A DNA stretch of 48,405 nucleotides, taken from Verrucomicrobiia bacterium (GTDB taxonomy: Bacteria; Verrucomicrobiota; Verrucomicrobiia; Limisphaerales; DSYF01). Positions 2,365-13,089 of the stretch are shown one piece after another. The stretch's first letter is position 1. The number at the start of each line of letters is the position of its first letter. The stretch covers positions 1-48,405 of the forward strand of contig DASTWL010000094.1 of the NCBI GenBank assembly GCA_035765895.1. Reading direction: 5' to 3'. The position numbers were made by a program, and so were the translations under genes. Under the pieces are notes generated by a model that saw only the letters and a list, made by a program, of their open reading frames with translations, made no database searches and was not told the DNA's origin.

Positions 2365-2537
2365 ACGTTGTGCCAGGCGTGGCGCGGCCGTCATTCATCG
2401 CCCACCGTTGAATCGTTGCTCAAATCCGGCCCCCGGCGGCCCGGTTTTGCATTTGTGCCGTGGCACGGTTCGCGCTTTCTCGAAACTTCGACAGCCCAAG
2501 CGATTGCATGTGGCCGTCAGTGGACAAATCAACTCGC

Positions 2538-4088
2538 ATGAAAACAATCCGCCTGAACCATTCCCTGCTTGTGCTTGCCGTTTGCGCGGCCCAAACCGTC
2601 TCAGCCAGCAACCTCGTCGTCACCAGCCCCGCGGATGATGGCAGCCCCGGCACGCTGCGCGCCACCCTCGCGGCCGCGGCCGATGGCGACACCATCGATC
2701 TGACCGGCATCACCGGCACCATCGCCCTCGACGGTGAACAACTGGAGGTGGACAGCAGCGTGACCCTTCTGGGCCCGGGACCAGGCCAGTTGATTATCGA
2801 CGCGCAACAGGCCAGCCGCGTGTTCTACATTGCCCCGGCCACCACCGTAACGATTTCCGGTCTGACCATCGCGAACGGATACGATTCCGTGTTCAGTGAT
2901 GCGGCCGGCGGCGGAATCCTGAATGAGCTGGCCAGCTTGACGCTGACCAACTGTGTGTTGCTCGACAACTCGGCGGAACTGGGCGCTGGCATTTTCAACG
3001 ATGCCGGCCTGTTGCTCTTCGGCCAGCCGGGCGCCGCAACCCTCACGCTGATCGACTGCACGTTGGACGGGAACATCTCCGAGAACGGCGCGGGCGGCGC
3101 GATTCTGAACGCCAGCCTCTATACCGCCCCCGCGTCACTCGTCGTCCAGCGTTGCACCTTGAGCGGCAACTCGGCCGCGCATGGCGGCGGCATTTTCAAC
3201 ATGGGCAACGCCACGGCGCAGATCGTGAACTCCACATTGAGCGGCAACCTTGCCACCAGCCAGGCCGGCGGCGGCATCGACAACAGTCAAGGTGGTGTCG
3301 TGCGCCTCGACGGTTGCACCTTGAGCGGCAACAACGCCGTCAACGGCCAGGGCGGCGGCATTGCCGTGCAACAGGCCACGCTGCAAATCCGGAACACCCT
3401 GTTGAGCGCCGGAACCGCCGGAGCCAATTTGTGGGTGGATCCCGCTGTCGCCAGCACCATTCAATCCTTCGGCTACAACCTCAGCAGCGATGACGGCTCC
3501 GGCTGGCTCGCGGCAACAGGTGACCGTGTCAACACCGATCCGCTGCTCGGCCCGTTGCAGGACAATGGCGGCCCGACGGCCACGCACGCCCTGCTGCCCG
3601 GCAGCCCGGCCATCGACACCGGTGCAGCCACGGACATCGCCGGCTCTCCAATTGCAACCGACCAGCGTGGCCTCGCGCGACCGCAGGGCATCGCCGTCGA
3701 TGTGGGCGCGTTCGAAGTGGAACAGGCGCCCGCGCAACAGCACCAATATTCCTGGTCCGGCGTTCTGCAACCGCTCAACAGCGACGGCTCCTCGGTCGTC
3801 AAGGCGGGCAGCACCGTGCCGGTGAAGTTCATGCTCACCGGCGAGGATGCCGGCATCACGGATTTGACGGCCACCTTGAGCTTCGCCAACGTCAGCGGCA
3901 GCGGCGTGGGGGACCTCAATGCCGCAAACACCAAAGTTTACGGTGGCGGCAGTCAGTTCCGGTTCGACCCGGCCTCGGGGCAATACCTCTTCAACTGGAG
4001 CACGAAGGGCCTGGCCGCCGGAAGCTATCGGCTCTTCATCGACCTGGGCGACGGCGTGGAGCGCAGCGTTGACGTCACGTTGCGCTAG
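2538..4088 (+). CDS. Secreted parallel beta-helix protein with C-terminal PxKF domain
   Basis: A 516-residue exported protein. Residues 1-23 (MKTIRLNHSLLVLAVCAAQT...) form a clear Sec signal peptide. The start of the mature protein, LVVTSPADDGSPGTLRATLA, resembles the CSLREA-type leader of secreted pectin-lyase-fold proteins. Residues ~60-400 carry imperfect beta-helix rungs with recurring (C)TLSGN and GGGI(F/D)N motifs. The region ends in GPLQDNGGPTATHALLPGSP and DQRGLARP, which are hallmarks of choice-of-anchor/polymorphic outer-membrane-like repeats. The last ~115 residues, with VVKAGSTVPVKF, form a PxKF domain, an Ig-like module of unknown function. Polysaccharide binding or adhesion is only inferred. 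No catalytic residues are identifiable. The ATG at 2538 is preferred over an upstream in-frame start at 2460 because it places the signal peptide at the very N-terminus. Confidence 0.8.
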   Translation: MKTIRLNHSLLVLAVCAAQTVSASNLVVTSPADDGSPGTLRATLAAAADGDTIDLTGITGTIALDGEQLEVDSSVTLLGPGPGQLIIDAQQASRVFYIAPATTVTISGLTIANGYDSVFSDAAGGGILNELASLTLTNCVLLDNSAELGAGIFNDAGLLLFGQPGAATLTLIDCTLDGNISENGAGGAILNASLYTAPASLVVQRCTLSGNSAAHGGGIFNMGNATAQIVNSTLSGNLATSQAGGGIDNSQGGVVRLDGCTLSGNNAVNGQGGGIAVQQATLQIRNTLLSAGTAGANLWVDPAVASTIQSFGYNLSSDDGSGWLAATGDRVNTDPLLGPLQDNGGPTATHALLPGSPAIDTGAATDIAGSPIATDQRGLARPQGIAVDVGAFEVEQAPAQQHQYSWSGVLQPLNSDGSSVVKAGSTVPVKFMLTGEDAGITDLTATLSFANVSGSGVGDLNAANTKVYGGGSQFRFDPASGQYLFNWSTKGLAAGSYRLFIDLGDGVERSVDVTLR

Positions 4089-6714: not shown

Positions 6715-9006
6715 TCAGTTGGCCTTCGCAGCGGCCACAGGCGGACCGGCACGCGGCTTGAACGGCTCAATGTTTCCTGCCTCGTCCAGCCACGGGAACC
6801 AGCGCCGCTGGTCCGCGGCTGCACCCAGTGCCGTCTGCGGACAACGGCGCACCAAGGCCTTGTAGAAAACATCGGCGGCCGGCGGAGCGGCGTATTTTAT
6901 CCACGTGCCCGCCTGCCACAACACCCGCGCCGTAGCGTCCGTGTTGTCGGGCATCAACTGCGCCGCCTCCCACGCAAGGCGCGTTGCGATGAAACGCCGA
7001 TACCAGCTCCGGTCCGGATACGCCGCGGAAGCGGCGACGCGTTCCCGCTCGTCGGCGCTCGTGGGCAGAGTGACCTGTCCCGCCGGCTGCAACCGGGCCG
7101 GCGGCGTGTCCGCGTAGGTAAACAACCCGCTGCAAATGCTCCAATCGGTTTCCGCTGGCGCCGCAAAAAAGTCGCCCTCATTCGTGAAAGCGATTTGCGC
7201 GGCCGTCCACAATGCGGCCGCGCGTTGCGCTTTTGAATTCGCTGGATTGTGGCCGACCGCGAGGCTGGCCAGATAAGCATCCAAATTCGTCCGGGTGGCG
7301 GATGCGAAGTAGGCTCGCGCCGCCGCCAGTTGCCCGGCGCGCACCAGGCGCGTGGCGAGCACGTGCCGGATTTCCGCGCCGAGGGTGGCGGCATCGTCTT
7401 CGGTGAAACCGTGAGCAGCATCAGCCGCGGCGCCCGCCGACGGCTCGGGCCAGTTGGCATCCACGTAACGTTTGAGTTCGTCGAGCGTCAACACCCGGCC
7501 TGCAACATACAAGGCATCCTCCACGTAACTGGAACGCAGCAGTGCGTCGAGCGCTTCGGTGTATTCACGCCGCGCCAGATGCAGCGCCCCCCATTCGCCC
7601 AGCAACTGGGTGCTCGCCGGGATCAAGCGAAAGCTGGAATGTTCCACCATCAACCGCTCCGGAAGCGCGGCGGCATGCGTCAACGGAACCACTTCGGATT
7701 CGCCCGGCGGAAACTGCCGCACGAGGCCGGCCAGCAGCGCGGCCGCCGGTTCCACCTTGCCGTCACGCAGCAGCAACTTCGCCTTGAGCCACTGGGCCGT
7801 CGGTGATTCGGGGGCGCGATCGATCCACCGTTGCGCGACCGCCCACTCGCCCGATTGATAGGCCGCCAGGGCCAGTTTCTCCGCCGAAGCCACGTCCCGC
7901 ACATTCGCGGCCTCAACCGCTTGCAGCCACAGGACCGCGGGCGATTCGACGTGATGCCATCCGCCCGCCGGTGCGACAAGGAAGCTCTGCCGCGCGAGTT
8001 GCCGGACCACCGGCTCCCAAAGCCGTCCGTCCACATCAACCGCCGGCTGCCGCCAGCCGCCGGACGTGAGGTAGGTGGTAATCACCCGCTGCGTGAGCGG
8101 ATTCTTCGCGAGCGGCGTCAGCCGGGTTGCCTGCTGCCGCAACGCCAAGGACGCGGTATAGCGCAAGGATTCGAACGCCGAAGAGTCGCCCGTCGCGGCT
8201 TGTTGGAGATAGAGCTCGATGGCGCGGTTAAAATCCTCGCGCCGCACCGCGAGCTGCGCCTCCCAACCCAGACTCGCCGCCGCCAGACCAAATCCATCCG
8301 CGAAGCCCGCCGCCGCCAGGGTCCGAGTCTCCTGAAAATACGCCACCGCCCGATCCGGTTGTGATTCACGACAGGCTTTGCCGAGCATGAACGCGGCCCA
8401 CGTGGAACGATAATGGCGCTCGGCCGGCGGACGTTTCAGCAGCGCCTGCCATGCGGCCATCGCGCCGTTGGTGTCGCCACCGGCCCAGGCCATCGCGCCG
8501 CGGAAGTAATCCGCAAATTCTCCGGGCAGACCGGCAGGAATCTGCACCTGGCCCGGCAAGAGTTGTGGCGGCGGATTGGTAAGGCTCGGCGCGTTCGTTG
8601 GCACCCAGGGAAGCTGCGTGCGTTCCCAGGCTCTACGTTGCTCGGCGAACTGCTGCAACGCGCGACGCTGGGTTTCATACTGGCGAAGCAATTGCAAGGC
8701 GCTTGCCAGCGGCAGGTCGCTCGCAGCCAGAGCCTGTTCCAACTCGGCCAAGTCAGCCCGCACCGTTGCGGCAGCCGGATCGTTGGTGGTGATCACCGCC
8801 CGGCCGATGGGCGCAGCCCGTTCCAGCGCGATGATTTCCCGTGTGAACATCGTTTCCGGCGCCACCAGCAGGCCGGCGCCGCCGCCGGGCAGGAGCCGGT
8901 TGGGAAAATCCGGCCCGCAGGCAAGCGCCCGCGCAACGCCGAGCAACAACGCCACGGCAGCGGCAAGCGGCCTAATTCCTTTGCAGTTCAAGTTGCACCT
9001 CGCCAT
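6715..9006 (-). CDS. Secreted helical-repeat (TPR-like) protein of unknown function, partner of the DUF3142 gene
   Basis: A 763-residue protein. An N-terminal signal peptide ends at about ALA|CGPDFPNRLL, so the mature protein would start with Cys, although the preceding residues are a poor lipobox. The rest is Ala/Leu/Trp-rich and predicted helical, with TPR-like segments (for example AVAYFQETRTL, AAAYQSGEWAVAQRWIDRA, LARREYTEALDALL) and no enzyme motif that I recognise. The start overlaps the end of the upstream DUF3142 gene by 35 bp in another frame, which implies a two-gene operon and possible translational coupling. The ATG at 9006 was chosen over 9030 because it gives a compact signal peptide. 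An internal GTG further downstream is also possible. A scaffold or envelope role is conceivable but not shown. Confidence 0.7.
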   Translation of the reverse strand: MARCNLNCKGIRPLAAAVALLLGVARALACGPDFPNRLLPGGGAGLLVAPETMFTREIIALERAAPIGRAVITTNDPAAATVRADLAELEQALAASDLPLASALQLLRQYETQRRALQQFAEQRRAWERTQLPWVPTNAPSLTNPPPQLLPGQVQIPAGLPGEFADYFRGAMAWAGGDTNGAMAAWQALLKRPPAERHYRSTWAAFMLGKACRESQPDRAVAYFQETRTLAAAGFADGFGLAAASLGWEAQLAVRREDFNRAIELYLQQAATGDSSAFESLRYTASLALRQQATRLTPLAKNPLTQRVITTYLTSGGWRQPAVDVDGRLWEPVVRQLARQSFLVAPAGGWHHVESPAVLWLQAVEAANVRDVASAEKLALAAYQSGEWAVAQRWIDRAPESPTAQWLKAKLLLRDGKVEPAAALLAGLVRQFPPGESEVVPLTHAAALPERLMVEHSSFRLIPASTQLLGEWGALHLARREYTEALDALLRSSYVEDALYVAGRVLTLDELKRYVDANWPEPSAGAAADAAHGFTEDDAATLGAEIRHVLATRLVRAGQLAAARAYFASATRTNLDAYLASLAVGHNPANSKAQRAAALWTAAQIAFTNEGDFFAAPAETDWSICSGLFTYADTPPARLQPAGQVTLPTSADERERVAASAAYPDRSWYRRFIATRLAWEAAQLMPDNTDATARVLWQAGTWIKYAAPPAADVFYKALVRRCPQTALGAAADQRRWFPWLDEAGNIEPFKPRAGPPVAAAKAN

Positions 9007-10267
9007 CGTGCGCCAGACGCAGCCAGCCAATGGTTCGCGTCTCGCCGGCCCGCAACGGAGTCACGGGCAAATCTTGTTGGAAACGAATCTGGGAAGGCTC
9101 CTCGTCGAGGAGGGAAAAACCTTGAACGGCATCGCCGGCAATCAAGCGTCCCCCATCCGCGCGGGACCAATGCACTTCCACAGCGAGCCGGGAGGAAATG
9201 TCGAGGTCACCATCGTTGATCAGGCTGATTTCCACCAACCCGGCCTCGACCCGGCGCGATTCGGCCCGCACATGGTCACGGAACGAACGCGACGCCACTA
9301 TGGCGGCGAGCGTGGGCCAGCGCCAGTTCAAGTTATCCACCACGACCGGCAAGCGATACCAAATCACGCCGCGCAAGGCCGCCGGACGGTCCGCCCTCCA
9401 ACCCCGCACCAGGTCCGCCATCGCCACGGGATCGGCCCGCACTTCGCGCACTTGCGCCCCAGACGGCCACGTTCGGGCCGGACCGTCCGCCGCCAGGCCG
9501 ATGAGTTTGCCAGCCGGATCGAAGGCGAGTTCATAACCATACGTGGGCAGCGCGACGCGAAAGGGAATGCCGATTCGGCCCGCCCGCTCCACCGCGCGCC
9601 GGGCCACCGGCGGATCGCACAAGGCAAATGGCGCATTCACCCCCCGCGGACGGGCGAGCGAATGCACTTGCAGCACGTAGTTCGTGGCGTGCGCGGCGAG
9701 GCGCCGGAAGGCCGCACGATCCAGCCAGCTGGGCAGCGCCGTAATGGTGACCGGCACCGGGGCGACGCGCTTTTGAATGGCCCCGAGCCACACGGCGTAG
9801 CCGTCCAGCCTGGCTTCGGCACAGTCGAAATCAATTTGCAGTTCAGCCGGTGCAACCGCATTCGTCCGGGCGGCGTCGAGCACGCTGCCGGCCAGATTGG
9901 AGAGGAACTGCGCGGTGACATCGTTTTCCGCGAAGGGGCCGGTGAAGGGTCCAATCCGCAGCACCAAGCCCAAGCGCACACCGGCTTGCCGGAGCGCAGT
10001 GTAATCGGGAACGACGCGGGCGACCGTTGGTTGGCCATTCTGCCATGCCACCTCGGCGGCCAGCACCGCCACTTCAGCGAAATTGGTTCCGTGCTCGCGG
10101 ACGGCATCGACGACCGGCTCATTCCAGACGCGTTGCCACACGTAAACATCATGCGGGAGCGGCCCGGCAACCCGCGGCGCCCGGGGACGCAGCCACAGCG
10201 CGCCAGCCAGCGCCAACAGCCCGAGCAGGCCAGCCACAAAACCCGCCTTGGTGGGAAAACGCGGCAT
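8972..10267 (-). CDS. DUF3142 family protein, membrane-anchored or exported
   Basis: A 431-residue protein with an N-terminal hydrophobic segment at residues 8-27 (GFVAGLLGLLALAGALWL), which is an uncleaved anchor or signal. It is followed by HDVYVWQRVWNEPV, the DUF3142 opening. The strand ELQIDFDCAEARLDGYAVWL near residue 143 is the most recognisable family motif. Its acidic (DFDC) residues, with LPTYGYELAFD later on, look like a TIM-barrel active-site rim similar to glycosidase-fold proteins. The family has no established function that I know of. The gene is first in an operon with the overlapping helical-repeat gene. It diverges from the DUF167 gene, whose start lies 84 bases away. The ATG at 10267 is the only start that includes the whole hydrophobic segment. 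Confidence 0.8.
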   Translation of the reverse strand: MPRFPTKAGFVAGLLGLLALAGALWLRPRAPRVAGPLPHDVYVWQRVWNEPVVDAVREHGTNFAEVAVLAAEVAWQNGQPTVARVVPDYTALRQAGVRLGLVLRIGPFTGPFAENDVTAQFLSNLAGSVLDAARTNAVAPAELQIDFDCAEARLDGYAVWLGAIQKRVAPVPVTITALPSWLDRAAFRRLAAHATNYVLQVHSLARPRGVNAPFALCDPPVARRAVERAGRIGIPFRVALPTYGYELAFDPAGKLIGLAADGPARTWPSGAQVREVRADPVAMADLVRGWRADRPAALRGVIWYRLPVVVDNLNWRWPTLAAIVASRSFRDHVRAESRRVEAGLVEISLINDGDLDISSRLAVEVHWSRADGGRLIAGDAVQGFSLLDEEPSQIRFQQDLPVTPLRAGETRTIGWLRLAHDGEVQLELQRN

Positions 10268-10351: not shown

Positions 10352-10696
10352 ATGCACGGCCAGAGTCATTCGTGCGACCGCCAGGCCTCCCAACCGGCCG
10401 GTTTGCCGCCCTTTCTCACGGCGCTGGCCGATGGCGTCCTGCTCGCGGTGAAAGTGCAGCCGCGCGCCGCCAGGAGCGAAATCGCCGGCGTGCTCGGTGC
10501 CGAGTTGCGCATCAAGGTGACGGCCCCGCCCGTGGATGCCGCCGCCAACGAGGCCCTGCTGCGTTTGCTTGGCGAAACCCTGGACTGCCCGCGCAACCGC
10601 ATCGAACTGCTGCGCGGCCACACGTCACGGCACAAGGTGCTCAAATTGCATGGCGCCGACGCCCGCGTCGTCGCGGCCCGCCTGACGGCCGGCTGA
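10352..10696 (+). CDS. DUF167 (YggU/UPF0235) family protein
   Basis: A 114-residue protein. From residue ~22 it reads as a full DUF167 domain: VKVQPRAARSEIAGV, then LRIKVTAPPVDAAANEAL, then RIELLRGHTSRHKVL. The family is small, widespread and structurally known, but has no agreed function. The N-terminal 20 residues (HSCDRQASQPAG) are not typical and could mean that translation starts later, although no good internal ATG exists. No operon partner is apparent: the next gene on this strand starts 73 bases downstream from a TTG. Confidence 0.8.
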   Translation: MHGQSHSCDRQASQPAGLPPFLTALADGVLLAVKVQPRAARSEIAGVLGAELRIKVTAPPVDAAANEALLRLLGETLDCPRNRIELLRGHTSRHKVLKLHGADARVVAARLTAG

Positions 10697-11797: not shown

Positions 11798-12919
11798 TCA
11801 GTGCTTCATTCCGACCCCGGTCACGCTGCGAATGTATTCCACTTCGCCCGGGACCAGCGGCGTTCCGTCCGGCCGGTAGATGTCGTGAAAGAGAACGGGC
11901 GGCTCGCCAGTATATTGTTTGCGCCAGGAATCCCACGGATAAATCGTCTGCGTTTTGCCCGCGACAAATCCCCAGTTGTAAGCGCCGACGCGCTCGTGTT
12001 TGAACCATCCGAGAATGGGATCGAACGTGCTGCCGGCCGGGCGGGCCATGTATTCGGTGCAAATCACCGGACGATGGTAGCGGCGCAGGTTCGCGACGCA
12101 TTGCTGAACGTCCTCCAGCTTGCTGTAATTGTGGAAGGTGATGATGTCGGACTGGCCCAGTTGAACCCGCTCCATCGGCGACAGTTTGCCTTCGTCACCC
12201 CAGTTCCCCAGCCAGACGCCCGAGGACAGCGGCTGCGAGGGATTCATCTCTCGCGCCCAAGCGAACGTCTTCTCCAGCAGCAGCCGCGCGGAATCCCGCT
12301 TGTTGGCCGGCTCCTCACGGACATAGGCCGGGTCGTTCACATTGTCCGGTTCATTGTAAACGTCCCAGAAATGAATGCGCGCATCGTCCCGAAAATGCCC
12401 CACCACGCCTTGCACGTAAGGCTTCAATTCATCCAGCCGCTCCGGATGCGCGAGGTAGTCGTAACCCGGCGATTGCACCCAGCCGGAGTTGTGAACGTGC
12501 AGGCGCGGCGCCCGCTGCGGTCCCAGCTTCGGAAACGGATCCCAGCAGGAATCGAACAGGACAAACATCACGCCGAGGTGATGCTTTTGCGCCAGCGACA
12601 AAAACTGGTCCATCCGCTTCAGCAAGCCTGCGGAATCCTGCTGCCAAAGCAGGTTGTGCAGGAACACCCGCACGCTCGTGAAACCAAGGCCCTCGGCGAG
12701 CCCCAGTTCGCGATCAATCGTGGCCGGGTCCCAGGAGTCCGCCTGCCACATCTCCAACTGGTTGATGGCCGTGCTTGGTCCAAAATTACAGCCCGCCAGC
12801 CATGGCTGCCGGGCATACCAGGCATTGGCCTGTTGCGGCGTCCACTGGTCGCGCCCCGGCACGTTCAGCGCCGCAAGCGTGACGGAAAGAACCACGAGCA
12901 AAAATCCCTGGCGTATCAT
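11798..12919 (-). CDS. Secreted GH5-like (clan GH-A) glycoside hydrolase
   Basis: A 373-residue enzyme with a signal peptide (residues 1-22, MIRQGFLLVVLSVTLAALNV). It has a TIM-barrel pattern: GFTSVRVFLHNLLW near residue 80, LGVMFVLFDSCWD near 115, HFWDVYNEPDN with acid/base Glu190, SDIITFHNYS near 258, and RPVICTEYMAR with nucleophile Glu289. The NEP and TEY motifs are the two catalytic glutamates of clan GH-A, in the spacing expected for GH5-type enzymes. Such proteins are often labelled cellulase-family or beta-1,4-xylanase-like, but the substrate is not determined by sequence alone. The ATG at 12919 gives the signal peptide. Upstream in-frame residues are not conserved-looking. It diverges from the ExoD-like gene. 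Confidence 0.82.
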   Translation of the reverse strand: MIRQGFLLVVLSVTLAALNVPGRDQWTPQQANAWYARQPWLAGCNFGPSTAINQLEMWQADSWDPATIDRELGLAEGLGFTSVRVFLHNLLWQQDSAGLLKRMDQFLSLAQKHHLGVMFVLFDSCWDPFPKLGPQRAPRLHVHNSGWVQSPGYDYLAHPERLDELKPYVQGVVGHFRDDARIHFWDVYNEPDNVNDPAYVREEPANKRDSARLLLEKTFAWAREMNPSQPLSSGVWLGNWGDEGKLSPMERVQLGQSDIITFHNYSKLEDVQQCVANLRRYHRPVICTEYMARPAGSTFDPILGWFKHERVGAYNWGFVAGKTQTIYPWDSWRKQYTGEPPVLFHDIYRPDGTPLVPGEVEYIRSVTGVGMKH

Positions 12920-13089
12920 AAAGTAGTATGGGTTCGCCGCCGAACGACCGTCGCTTGGCGGAAATGTTCCCCGGTTTATCGGGTTTGCAGGAAACAGGCA
13001 ATACACACGAACATGCGACAGCCCCGGCCATAATGTCGTTGACACCGAACGGCGTGCGGCTAAGCAGCAAGTGGCCGGGCGAATCACCC

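What the first reader, a model, noticed from the sequence alone, without database searches (positions are those of the whole stretch)
6715..10267. Overlapping gene pair: DUF3142 protein and a secreted helical-repeat protein
Two uncharacterised envelope proteins are encoded with a 35-base overlap in different frames. The repeat protein has an unusual mature start CGPDFP. DUF3142 has a barrel-like fold with an acidic DFDC strand. Such tight coupling suggests a two-component envelope complex that has not been described.
Basis: partly seen in the sequence, partly recalled or inferred. Interest (0 to 1): 0.5.

Follow-up and report, generated by a model that had tools for sequence, protein, structure and literature searches.

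The report
Chitinase-like enzyme plus dedicated helical partner
Two overlapping genes encode a chitinase-like exported protein and a helical-repeat protein that are found side by side in distant bacteria, so they very probably work together on a sugar polymer of the cell envelope, in a way we found no description of.

Summary
DUF3142 (gene B, 8972-10267, minus strand) overlaps the downstream gene A (6715-9006) by 35 bases, or 20 if the TTG at 8991 is the start. In 240 genomes of the phylum, 28 of 33 DUF3142 matches have an A-family gene directly downstream, 4 have a related ~1,130-aa protein there, and 1 lies at a contig end. Of 13 plasmid records with DUF3142, 11 carry a partner directly upstream and one downstream. 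No third neighbour is conserved. DUF3142 is a divergent GH18 (chitinase-like) barrel: a profile alignment sets its Q-x-D-x-D on the GH18 catalytic DxDxE. Its only named member found, Yersinia TfeC (PDB 8y6t/9vtv), is called a chitinase. A is an exported TPR-like solenoid; its Cys-Gly-Pro start is a family hallmark. Best reading: an envelope glycan hydrolase with a dedicated solenoid partner. Complex, activity and substrate are inferred, not shown. In this genome A departs from its family at 10 of 40 near-invariant positions, B at none of 24.

The parts
8972..10267 (-). Gene B: DUF3142 protein, 431 aa; N-terminal hydrophobic segment, GH18-like barrel, C-terminal beta domain
   Evidence: secondary structure of a low-confidence model
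6715..9006 (-). Gene A: exported TPR-like helical solenoid, 763 aa from ATG 9006 (758 aa if it starts at TTG 8991)
8972..9006 (-). Overlap of the two genes in different frames: 35 bases from ATG 9006, 20 bases (8972-8991) from TTG 8991
8996..9001 (-). Shine-Dalgarno-like GAGGTG upstream of TTG 8991, inside gene B
   Evidence: Read; flagged
8920..9006 (-). Signal peptide of A (residues 1-29, by eye), ending ALA before Cys30-Gly-Pro-Asp-Phe-Pro
10190..10243 (-). Hydrophobic N-terminal segment of B (about residues 9-26); a lipobox-like Cys occurs in 6 to 13 of 33 homologues depending on the pattern, none in the window protein
   Evidence: read
9824..9838 (-). Putative active-site motif Q144-I-D146-F-D148 of B; aligns with GH18 DxDxE
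8978..9238 (-). C-terminal beta-strand domain of B (about residues 344-430)
   Evidence: low confidence
6787..7617 (-). C-terminal conserved module of A (about residues 464-740); the family's RFHYR and LARRL centre is altered here

Best explanation
A self-contained two-gene envelope module. B (DUF3142) is exported and probably stays anchored to a membrane (N-terminal hydrophobic segment; a possible lipid anchor in some relatives). It is a divergent GH18-superfamily barrel that cleaves a GlcNAc-containing glycan with a Q-x-D-x-D site in place of DxDxE. A is exported, cut before an N-terminal Cys-Gly-Pro, and folds as a TPR-like solenoid that is the dedicated partner of B, feeding, holding or placing the glycan or the enzyme. 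Closely packed or overlapping starts couple their translation so that both are made together. Shown: adjacency, overlap, co-inheritance, profile relation of B to GH18, relation of most partner types to each other. Inferred: enzymatic activity, glycan type, physical complex, cleavage and anchoring, exact role of A.
For: Linkage: 33 DUF3142 matches in 32 of 240 genomes; 28 have an A-family gene next to them downstream (window, L062-L087, and L099 whose B is disrupted; L069's A is cut by the contig end), 4 (L088, L089, L090, L096) have a 1,124-1,194-aa partner there, 1 (L098) is at a contig end. Genome table 29 both / 5 A only / 3 B only / 203 neither, counted by hand, Fisher 6e-29, relatedness not corrected. 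Second phylum: 6 of 8 above-cut-off DUF3142 loci have a partner, one of them only distantly related. Plasmids: 11 of 13 records have the partner directly upstream, 1 directly downstream. Partner types related to each other: hhalign 96.3 and 96.7; shuffles at most 12.6; two generic TPR proteins at most 1.4. 23 of 28 A genes have a candidate ATG start inside B. Mirror correlation 0.934, Mantel 0 of 5,000, 14 of 25 tree splits shared, no conflict between splits of 0.9 support or more. Enzyme: B profile vs GH18 from the same phylum, local probability 83.2 against at most 1.0 in 20 shuffles, motif on motif; TfeC titled chitinase. D146 in 33 of 33, D148 in 32 and Glu in 1.
Against: The catalytic Glu of GH18 is Asp here and the Asp before it in the motif is Gln. 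No GH18 Pfam hit for B. The AF2 models are poor because only two sequences were used. 5 of 34 A-bearing genomes have no DUF3142; G014 has a second A without B near; G474 has A with no B in the 4.86 kb upstream. Two distant DUF3142 loci (L114, L115) show no partner. The direct A2-A7 comparison is weak, 25.5. Nearest neighbours in A and B agree in only 13 of 28. A of this genome departs at 10 of 40 near-invariant positions. No direct evidence of binding.
Confidence: 0.57

Rival explanations
1. B is a dead GH18-like barrel: the pair is a glycan-binding or sensing module, not a hydrolase.
For: GH18 catalytic Glu absent; D148 in its place and Gln for the Asp before. Chitinase-like proteins without known activity (e.g. 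the agglutinin 4uri, SI-CLP 3bxw; lack of activity recalled) appear among the structural matches of the rough model. In Xanthomonas the pair follows an ECF sigma factor, FecR, a TonB receptor and a TPR gene, a sensing/uptake type of locus.
Against: D146 is invariant in 33 of 33 and position 148 is Asp or Glu in 33 of 33. TfeC, whose printed stretch has the same QIDFD, is called a chitinase.
Confidence: 0.2
2. B is a weapon like TfeC (an exported antifungal or antibacterial hydrolase), and A is its chaperone, carrier or self-protection protein.
For: The only named family member found is a T6SS antifungal effector. A plasmid relative (Providencia, 60.6% identical over 132 residues) has the partner gene overlapping upstream.
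Against: B and A have export-type N-termini and some B have a lipobox-like anchor, which fits a resident envelope protein. No secretion-system family was among the 25 commonest of 74 families in 61 neighbouring proteins (the other 49 were not shown).
Confidence: 0.12
3. The genes share an operon for regulation only; the proteins act separately in glycan uptake.
For: Xanthomonas locus with a TonB receptor.
Against: Opposite gene order with the partner kept, no other conserved neighbour, and close-packed starts are more than co-regulation needs.
Confidence: 0.11

Closest known systems
TfeC, Yersinia pseudotuberculosis (PDB 8y6t, 9vtv; DUF3142 domain)
   Same: Named a DUF3142 domain protein; profile match E=6e-13 over 136 profile positions with the same QIDFD motif; structural match of the rough model.
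   Different: TfeC is 262 aa against 431, so by length it lacks B's C-terminal beta domain, and it is described as T6SS-delivered (passages). The original article (Zhu et al. 2026) was seen only as a reference and is not held. Whether its gene has the partner was not looked up.
GH18 chitinases and spore-cortex glycosylases (e.g. YdhD 3cz8, SleL 4s3k)
   Same: Local profile alignment over residues 122-248; the DxDxE position and two later strand motifs line up; VIA-align Z about 10 from a low-confidence model.
   Different: DxDxE reads QxDxD; no Pfam GH18 hit; extra C-terminal beta domain; a near-constant solenoid partner gene.
TPR superhelix proteins (OGT TPR domain 1w3b, IFIT, consensus TPR)
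   Same: Helical superhelix in the rough model; profile A2 matches TPR chains weakly.
   Different: Export signal, CGP start, a conserved C-terminal R/H/Y/W-rich centre, no Pfam TPR above cut-off.
PgaA/PgaB and PelA/PelB (envelope hydrolase or deacetylase plus TPR protein; recalled, not tested)
   Same: Works-like analogy: a periplasmic glycan enzyme paired with a TPR scaffold.
   Different: No other gene, so no synthase or outer-membrane barrel, recurs next to this pair in the loci compared.

Membership tests
DUF3142 (PF11340) | Score above Pfam cut-off (30 bits) | tested here: met
   116 bits, E=3.1e-33
GH18 | Pfam GH18 profile hit | tested here: not met
   No GH18 among Pfam hits at E up to 1; none in the whole own genome
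GH18 | Catalytic DxxDxDxE with Glu (motif recalled, seen in GH18 stretches) | tested here: not met
   Reads Q144-x-D146-x-D148; Glu at 148 in 1 of 33
GH18 | Homologous (beta/alpha)8 barrel | tested here: inconclusive
   hhalign local 83.2 vs at most 1.0 in 20 shuffles; Foldseek/VIA matches to GH18 but model pLDDT 48.7
GH18 | Hydrolysis of GlcNAc-containing glycan | not testable with these tools
   Only TfeC, by PDB title and a review passage
TfeC-type T6SS effectors | Delivery by a T6SS; T6SS genes near | tested here: inconclusive
   None among the 25 shown of 74 families in 61 neighbouring proteins; delivery itself not testable
TPR repeat proteins | Pfam TPR above cut-off | tested here: not met
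   TPR_16 21.8 bits vs 32.7
TPR repeat proteins | Helical superhelix | tested here: inconclusive
   Rough model helical, best matches include TPR superhelices
Bacterial lipoproteins (window protein A) | Lipobox before the Cys | tested here: not met
   Window RALA|C fails a strict and a loose pattern (both recalled). Family mixed: strict 2 of 28, loose 13 of 28
A-family (partner of DUF3142) | Full-length similarity to the family | tested here: met
   Profile E=1e-195 (window included in the profile); 37-49% identity in the main matching stretches to five order relatives
A-family (partner of DUF3142) | Conserved C-terminal centre (LARRL, RFHYR) | tested here: not met
   Window A departs at 10 of 40 near-invariant columns; a feature noticed here, so not a settled definition of the family

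The most novel reading that the evidence does not exclude
A widespread two-protein envelope machine: a GH18-like hydrolase with a variant Asp-Asp site that needs a dedicated exported solenoid carrying its own conserved R/H/Y-rich site. It is found in the window's phylum, in Planctomycetota and in Pseudomonadota, in both gene orders, and moves as a unit. TfeC, described as an effector on its own, would belong to this pair system.
Probability: 0.35. Interest if true: 0.72.

Novelty: new variant of a known kind. Interest (0 to 1): 0.55.

Why it matters
It turns a domain of unknown function and a nameless repeat protein into a testable enzyme-partner pair with predicted catalytic residues, in bacteria whose envelope glycans are poorly known. 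The opposite gene order in other lineages says that the partnership, not just the operon, is selected. It also suggests checking whether the antifungal chitinase TfeC has a partner protein.

Tried and rejected
Viral-contig scans for relatives gave none. AlphaFold with two sequences gave poor models; matches from them are used only as support. Global hhalign of B to GH18 gave 92.0 but one of 20 shuffles gave 99.5, so only the local result is used. A2 against A7 alone is weak (25.5). SusC/SusD-like uptake was considered because of the Xanthomonas locus and dropped: no gene beyond A and B recurs widely and no TonB receptor is among the 25 commonest neighbour families. A DsbH/thioredoxin-like gene stands beside the stand-alone A C-terminal domain in L091/L092; for L092 it is not a hidden B nor a piece of A. 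For GH18, 23 stretches were translated and 6 with stops in the guessed frame were dropped, leaving 17. The neighbour tally scanned 61 of the 189 neighbour ORFs, some loci left out, and only 25 of 74 families were shown. Of 36 A-family sequences in the cluster, 32 went into alignment A2; L069, L091, L092 and L099, short or cut, were left out. In the second phylum the A2 profile matched 32 of 199 genomes at E up to 0.001; apart from the five with B and a clear A, the other 27 are weak (E 2.7e-7 or more), which I read as generic TPR stretches and did not examine.
Full report
1. What is there. On the minus strand, gene B (8972-10267, 431 aa) is DUF3142 by Pfam. Gene A (6715-9006, 763 aa) starts inside it. 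A TTG at 8991 has GAGGTG in front of it, and the ATG was not flagged with such a site, so 20 bases is as likely. The genome has one match to each. On the far side of B lies a divergent DUF167 gene (10352-10696, plus). A is followed by a PfkB-kinase ORF on the same strand.

2. Are they really partners? In 240 genomes drawn from the phylum, P0001 (A) matches 34 and DUF3142 (B) matches 32 (33 places). I fetched the surroundings of all 33 places; the window itself is one. In 28 an A-family gene follows B directly on the same strand; of these, G217's A is cut by a contig end and G048's B is disrupted. In 4 places without an A-family hit (L088, L089, L090, L096) a 1,124-1,194-aa protein follows directly, with an export-type start by eye; three of the four open frames overlap B and three of the four have Cys-Gly-Pro after the signal. 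L098 ends with its contig, and the same genome's A stands at the start of another contig (L097). At genome level: 29 both, 5 A only, 3 B only, 203 neither (Fisher 6e-29; the genomes are related, so the figure overstates the evidence). A profile search with A2 gives strong matches (E below 1e-50) in the same 34 genomes; 18 further genomes have weak hits, two of them short C-terminal fragments (G006, G132, E about 1e-11), the rest mainly in the repeat region. It also shows a second A in G014 on C13, already.

3. Elsewhere. In 199 genomes of the phylum of L002 (Planctomycetota by its record title; a draw with different handles from the window's phylum), 9 have DUF3142, 8 above cut-off. Four, L002 among them, have A (E below 1e-150); one has a distant A overlapping by 4 bases (L117, E=6e-14); one a long open frame directly downstream, related to the partner families at hhalign 54-76 from a start I chose (L116); L114 and L115 have none seen. 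The four strong A matches of that phylum lie with B. In plasmid records, 13 hold DUF3142. Xanthomonas sacchari has B then A. Eleven others (Burkholderia, Novosphingobium, Aeromonas, Providencia) have an A7-type protein directly before a short DUF3142 by the places; in the five I read closely the protein is 710-777 aa long. B. ubonensis gave only a DUF3142 fragment and no partner. The two Providencia records have identical A7-type proteins, so they count once. Among 40 relatives of the window genome, itself included, A is in 6 and B in 5; the one genus mate and two family mates lack both, so the pair is accessory. It is adjacent in own, G460, G477 and G458, on contig ends in G469, and G474 has A without B.

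4. Are the different partners one family? hhalign A2-A8 96.3, A7-A8 96.7, A2-A7 25.5. Block-shuffled controls reach at most 12.6 and two ordinary TPR proteins at most 1.4. So they are probably one divergent superfamily; the direct A2-A7 link is weak.

5. Co-inheritance. For 28 pairs, distances in A and B correlate at 0.934 (0 of 5,000 permutations reach it). 14 of 25 splits are shared and no splits with support of 0.9 or more conflict; nearest neighbours agree in 13 of 28. No third gene is conserved beside the pair: after A, B and ORFs on their opposite strand, the largest group covers 7 of 41 loci, at scattered places, and 61 neighbour proteins give 74 families, none in more than 2 proteins.

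6. B. Secondary structure of a low-confidence model is beta/alpha followed by a beta domain. Foldseek and VIA-align match GH18 enzymes and TfeC (Z about 10, tied among many). By profile, B against 17 GH18 stretches from the same phylum scores 83.2 (local) against at most 1.0 in 20 shuffles and 0.2 reversed. In that alignment Q144-x-D146-x-D148 falls on DxDxE, YVLQVH on the strand-6 MxYD region, LPTYGY on the GxPxYG motif (motif names recalled); the tail GVIWYRLP meets the strand-8 Trp only in the global alignment, which I do not rely on. D146 is invariant in 33 of 33; D148 is Asp in 32 and Glu in L096, the GH18 letter. The window genome has no ordinary GH18 match. A lipobox-like Cys is found in 13 of 33 B proteins by one pattern (that of L002 doubtful), in 10 by a loose and 6 by a strict one.

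7. A. The model is almost wholly helical (pLDDT 55.9), and many of its matches are TPR superhelices. Cys30 is kept in 28 of 32. Of 27 A proteins with Cys, -1 is Ala or Gly in 25 and -3 is Ala in 17, which suits signal peptidase I; only 2 of 28 fit a strict lipobox, but 13 of 28 fit a loose one, so the fate of the Cys is open except that the window protein fits neither. A conserved C-terminal centre (LARRL, PD, RFHYR, W736) marks the family. The window's A departs at 10 of 40 near-invariant columns (503, 552, 610, 613, 615, 620, 667, 669, 670, 675), while the five order relatives keep most of them, with scattered departures, and its B departs at none of 24. The frame stays open and alignable through this stretch, so this is divergence, not an obvious error. 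It may mean a changed role of A in this lineage.

8. Mechanism. I think B is an anchored periplasmic glycan hydrolase and A its dedicated solenoid partner, made together through closely packed starts: 23 of 28 A genes have a candidate ATG inside B, often four bases before its end. Activity rests on TfeC, known to me here only through PDB titles and passages of two papers (PMC13162877; PMC13008689, which calls it an antifungal chitinase). The source article (Zhu et al. 2026, Nat. Microbiol.) was seen only as a reference and is not held. Binding between A and B is inferred.

9. Literature. DUF3142 or PF11340 occurs in one paper of the library, a list of clusters linked to halotolerance in which the next cluster number is a hypothetical protein (PMC10040529, one passage). 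A search combining GH18 with TPR, periplasm, lipoprotein and operon gave two papers, of which I saw the listing only. In these searches and I found no description of the pair.

Noticed in passing
L100:5269-15331: Xanthomonas sacchari plasmid: ECF sigma factor, FecR, TonB-dependent receptor, TPR protein, DUF3142 and A in a row, an uptake-and-regulation type of context.
   Followed up: partly
L091:9522-10478 and L092:9195-10172: Stand-alone C-terminal domain of A (about 320 aa) next to a thioredoxin-like protein and an epimerase, without DUF3142.
   Followed up: partly
L099:8816-10443: Disrupted DUF3142 gene (one in-frame stop) beside a short A in G048: the pair seems to decay together.
   Followed up: no
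G014:C13:7014-8981: Second A-family gene (E=3.5e-93) on another contig, with no DUF3142 match there.
   Followed up: no
window 6787-7617: A's conserved C-terminal centre is altered in this genome but largely kept in five relatives of the order, while B is intact.
   Followed up: partly
window 11798-13087: Protein with a weak but above-cut-off GH10 match (24.0 bits against 22.1).
   Followed up: no
window 2460-4088: Beta-helix protein above cut-off, with a below-cut-off match to the Chlamydia polymorphic membrane protein repeat.
   Followed up: no
L114:9175-11034: DUF3142 locus without a visible solenoid partner; the next gene looks like a secreted glycoside-hydrolase-like protein (read by eye).
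   Followed up: no
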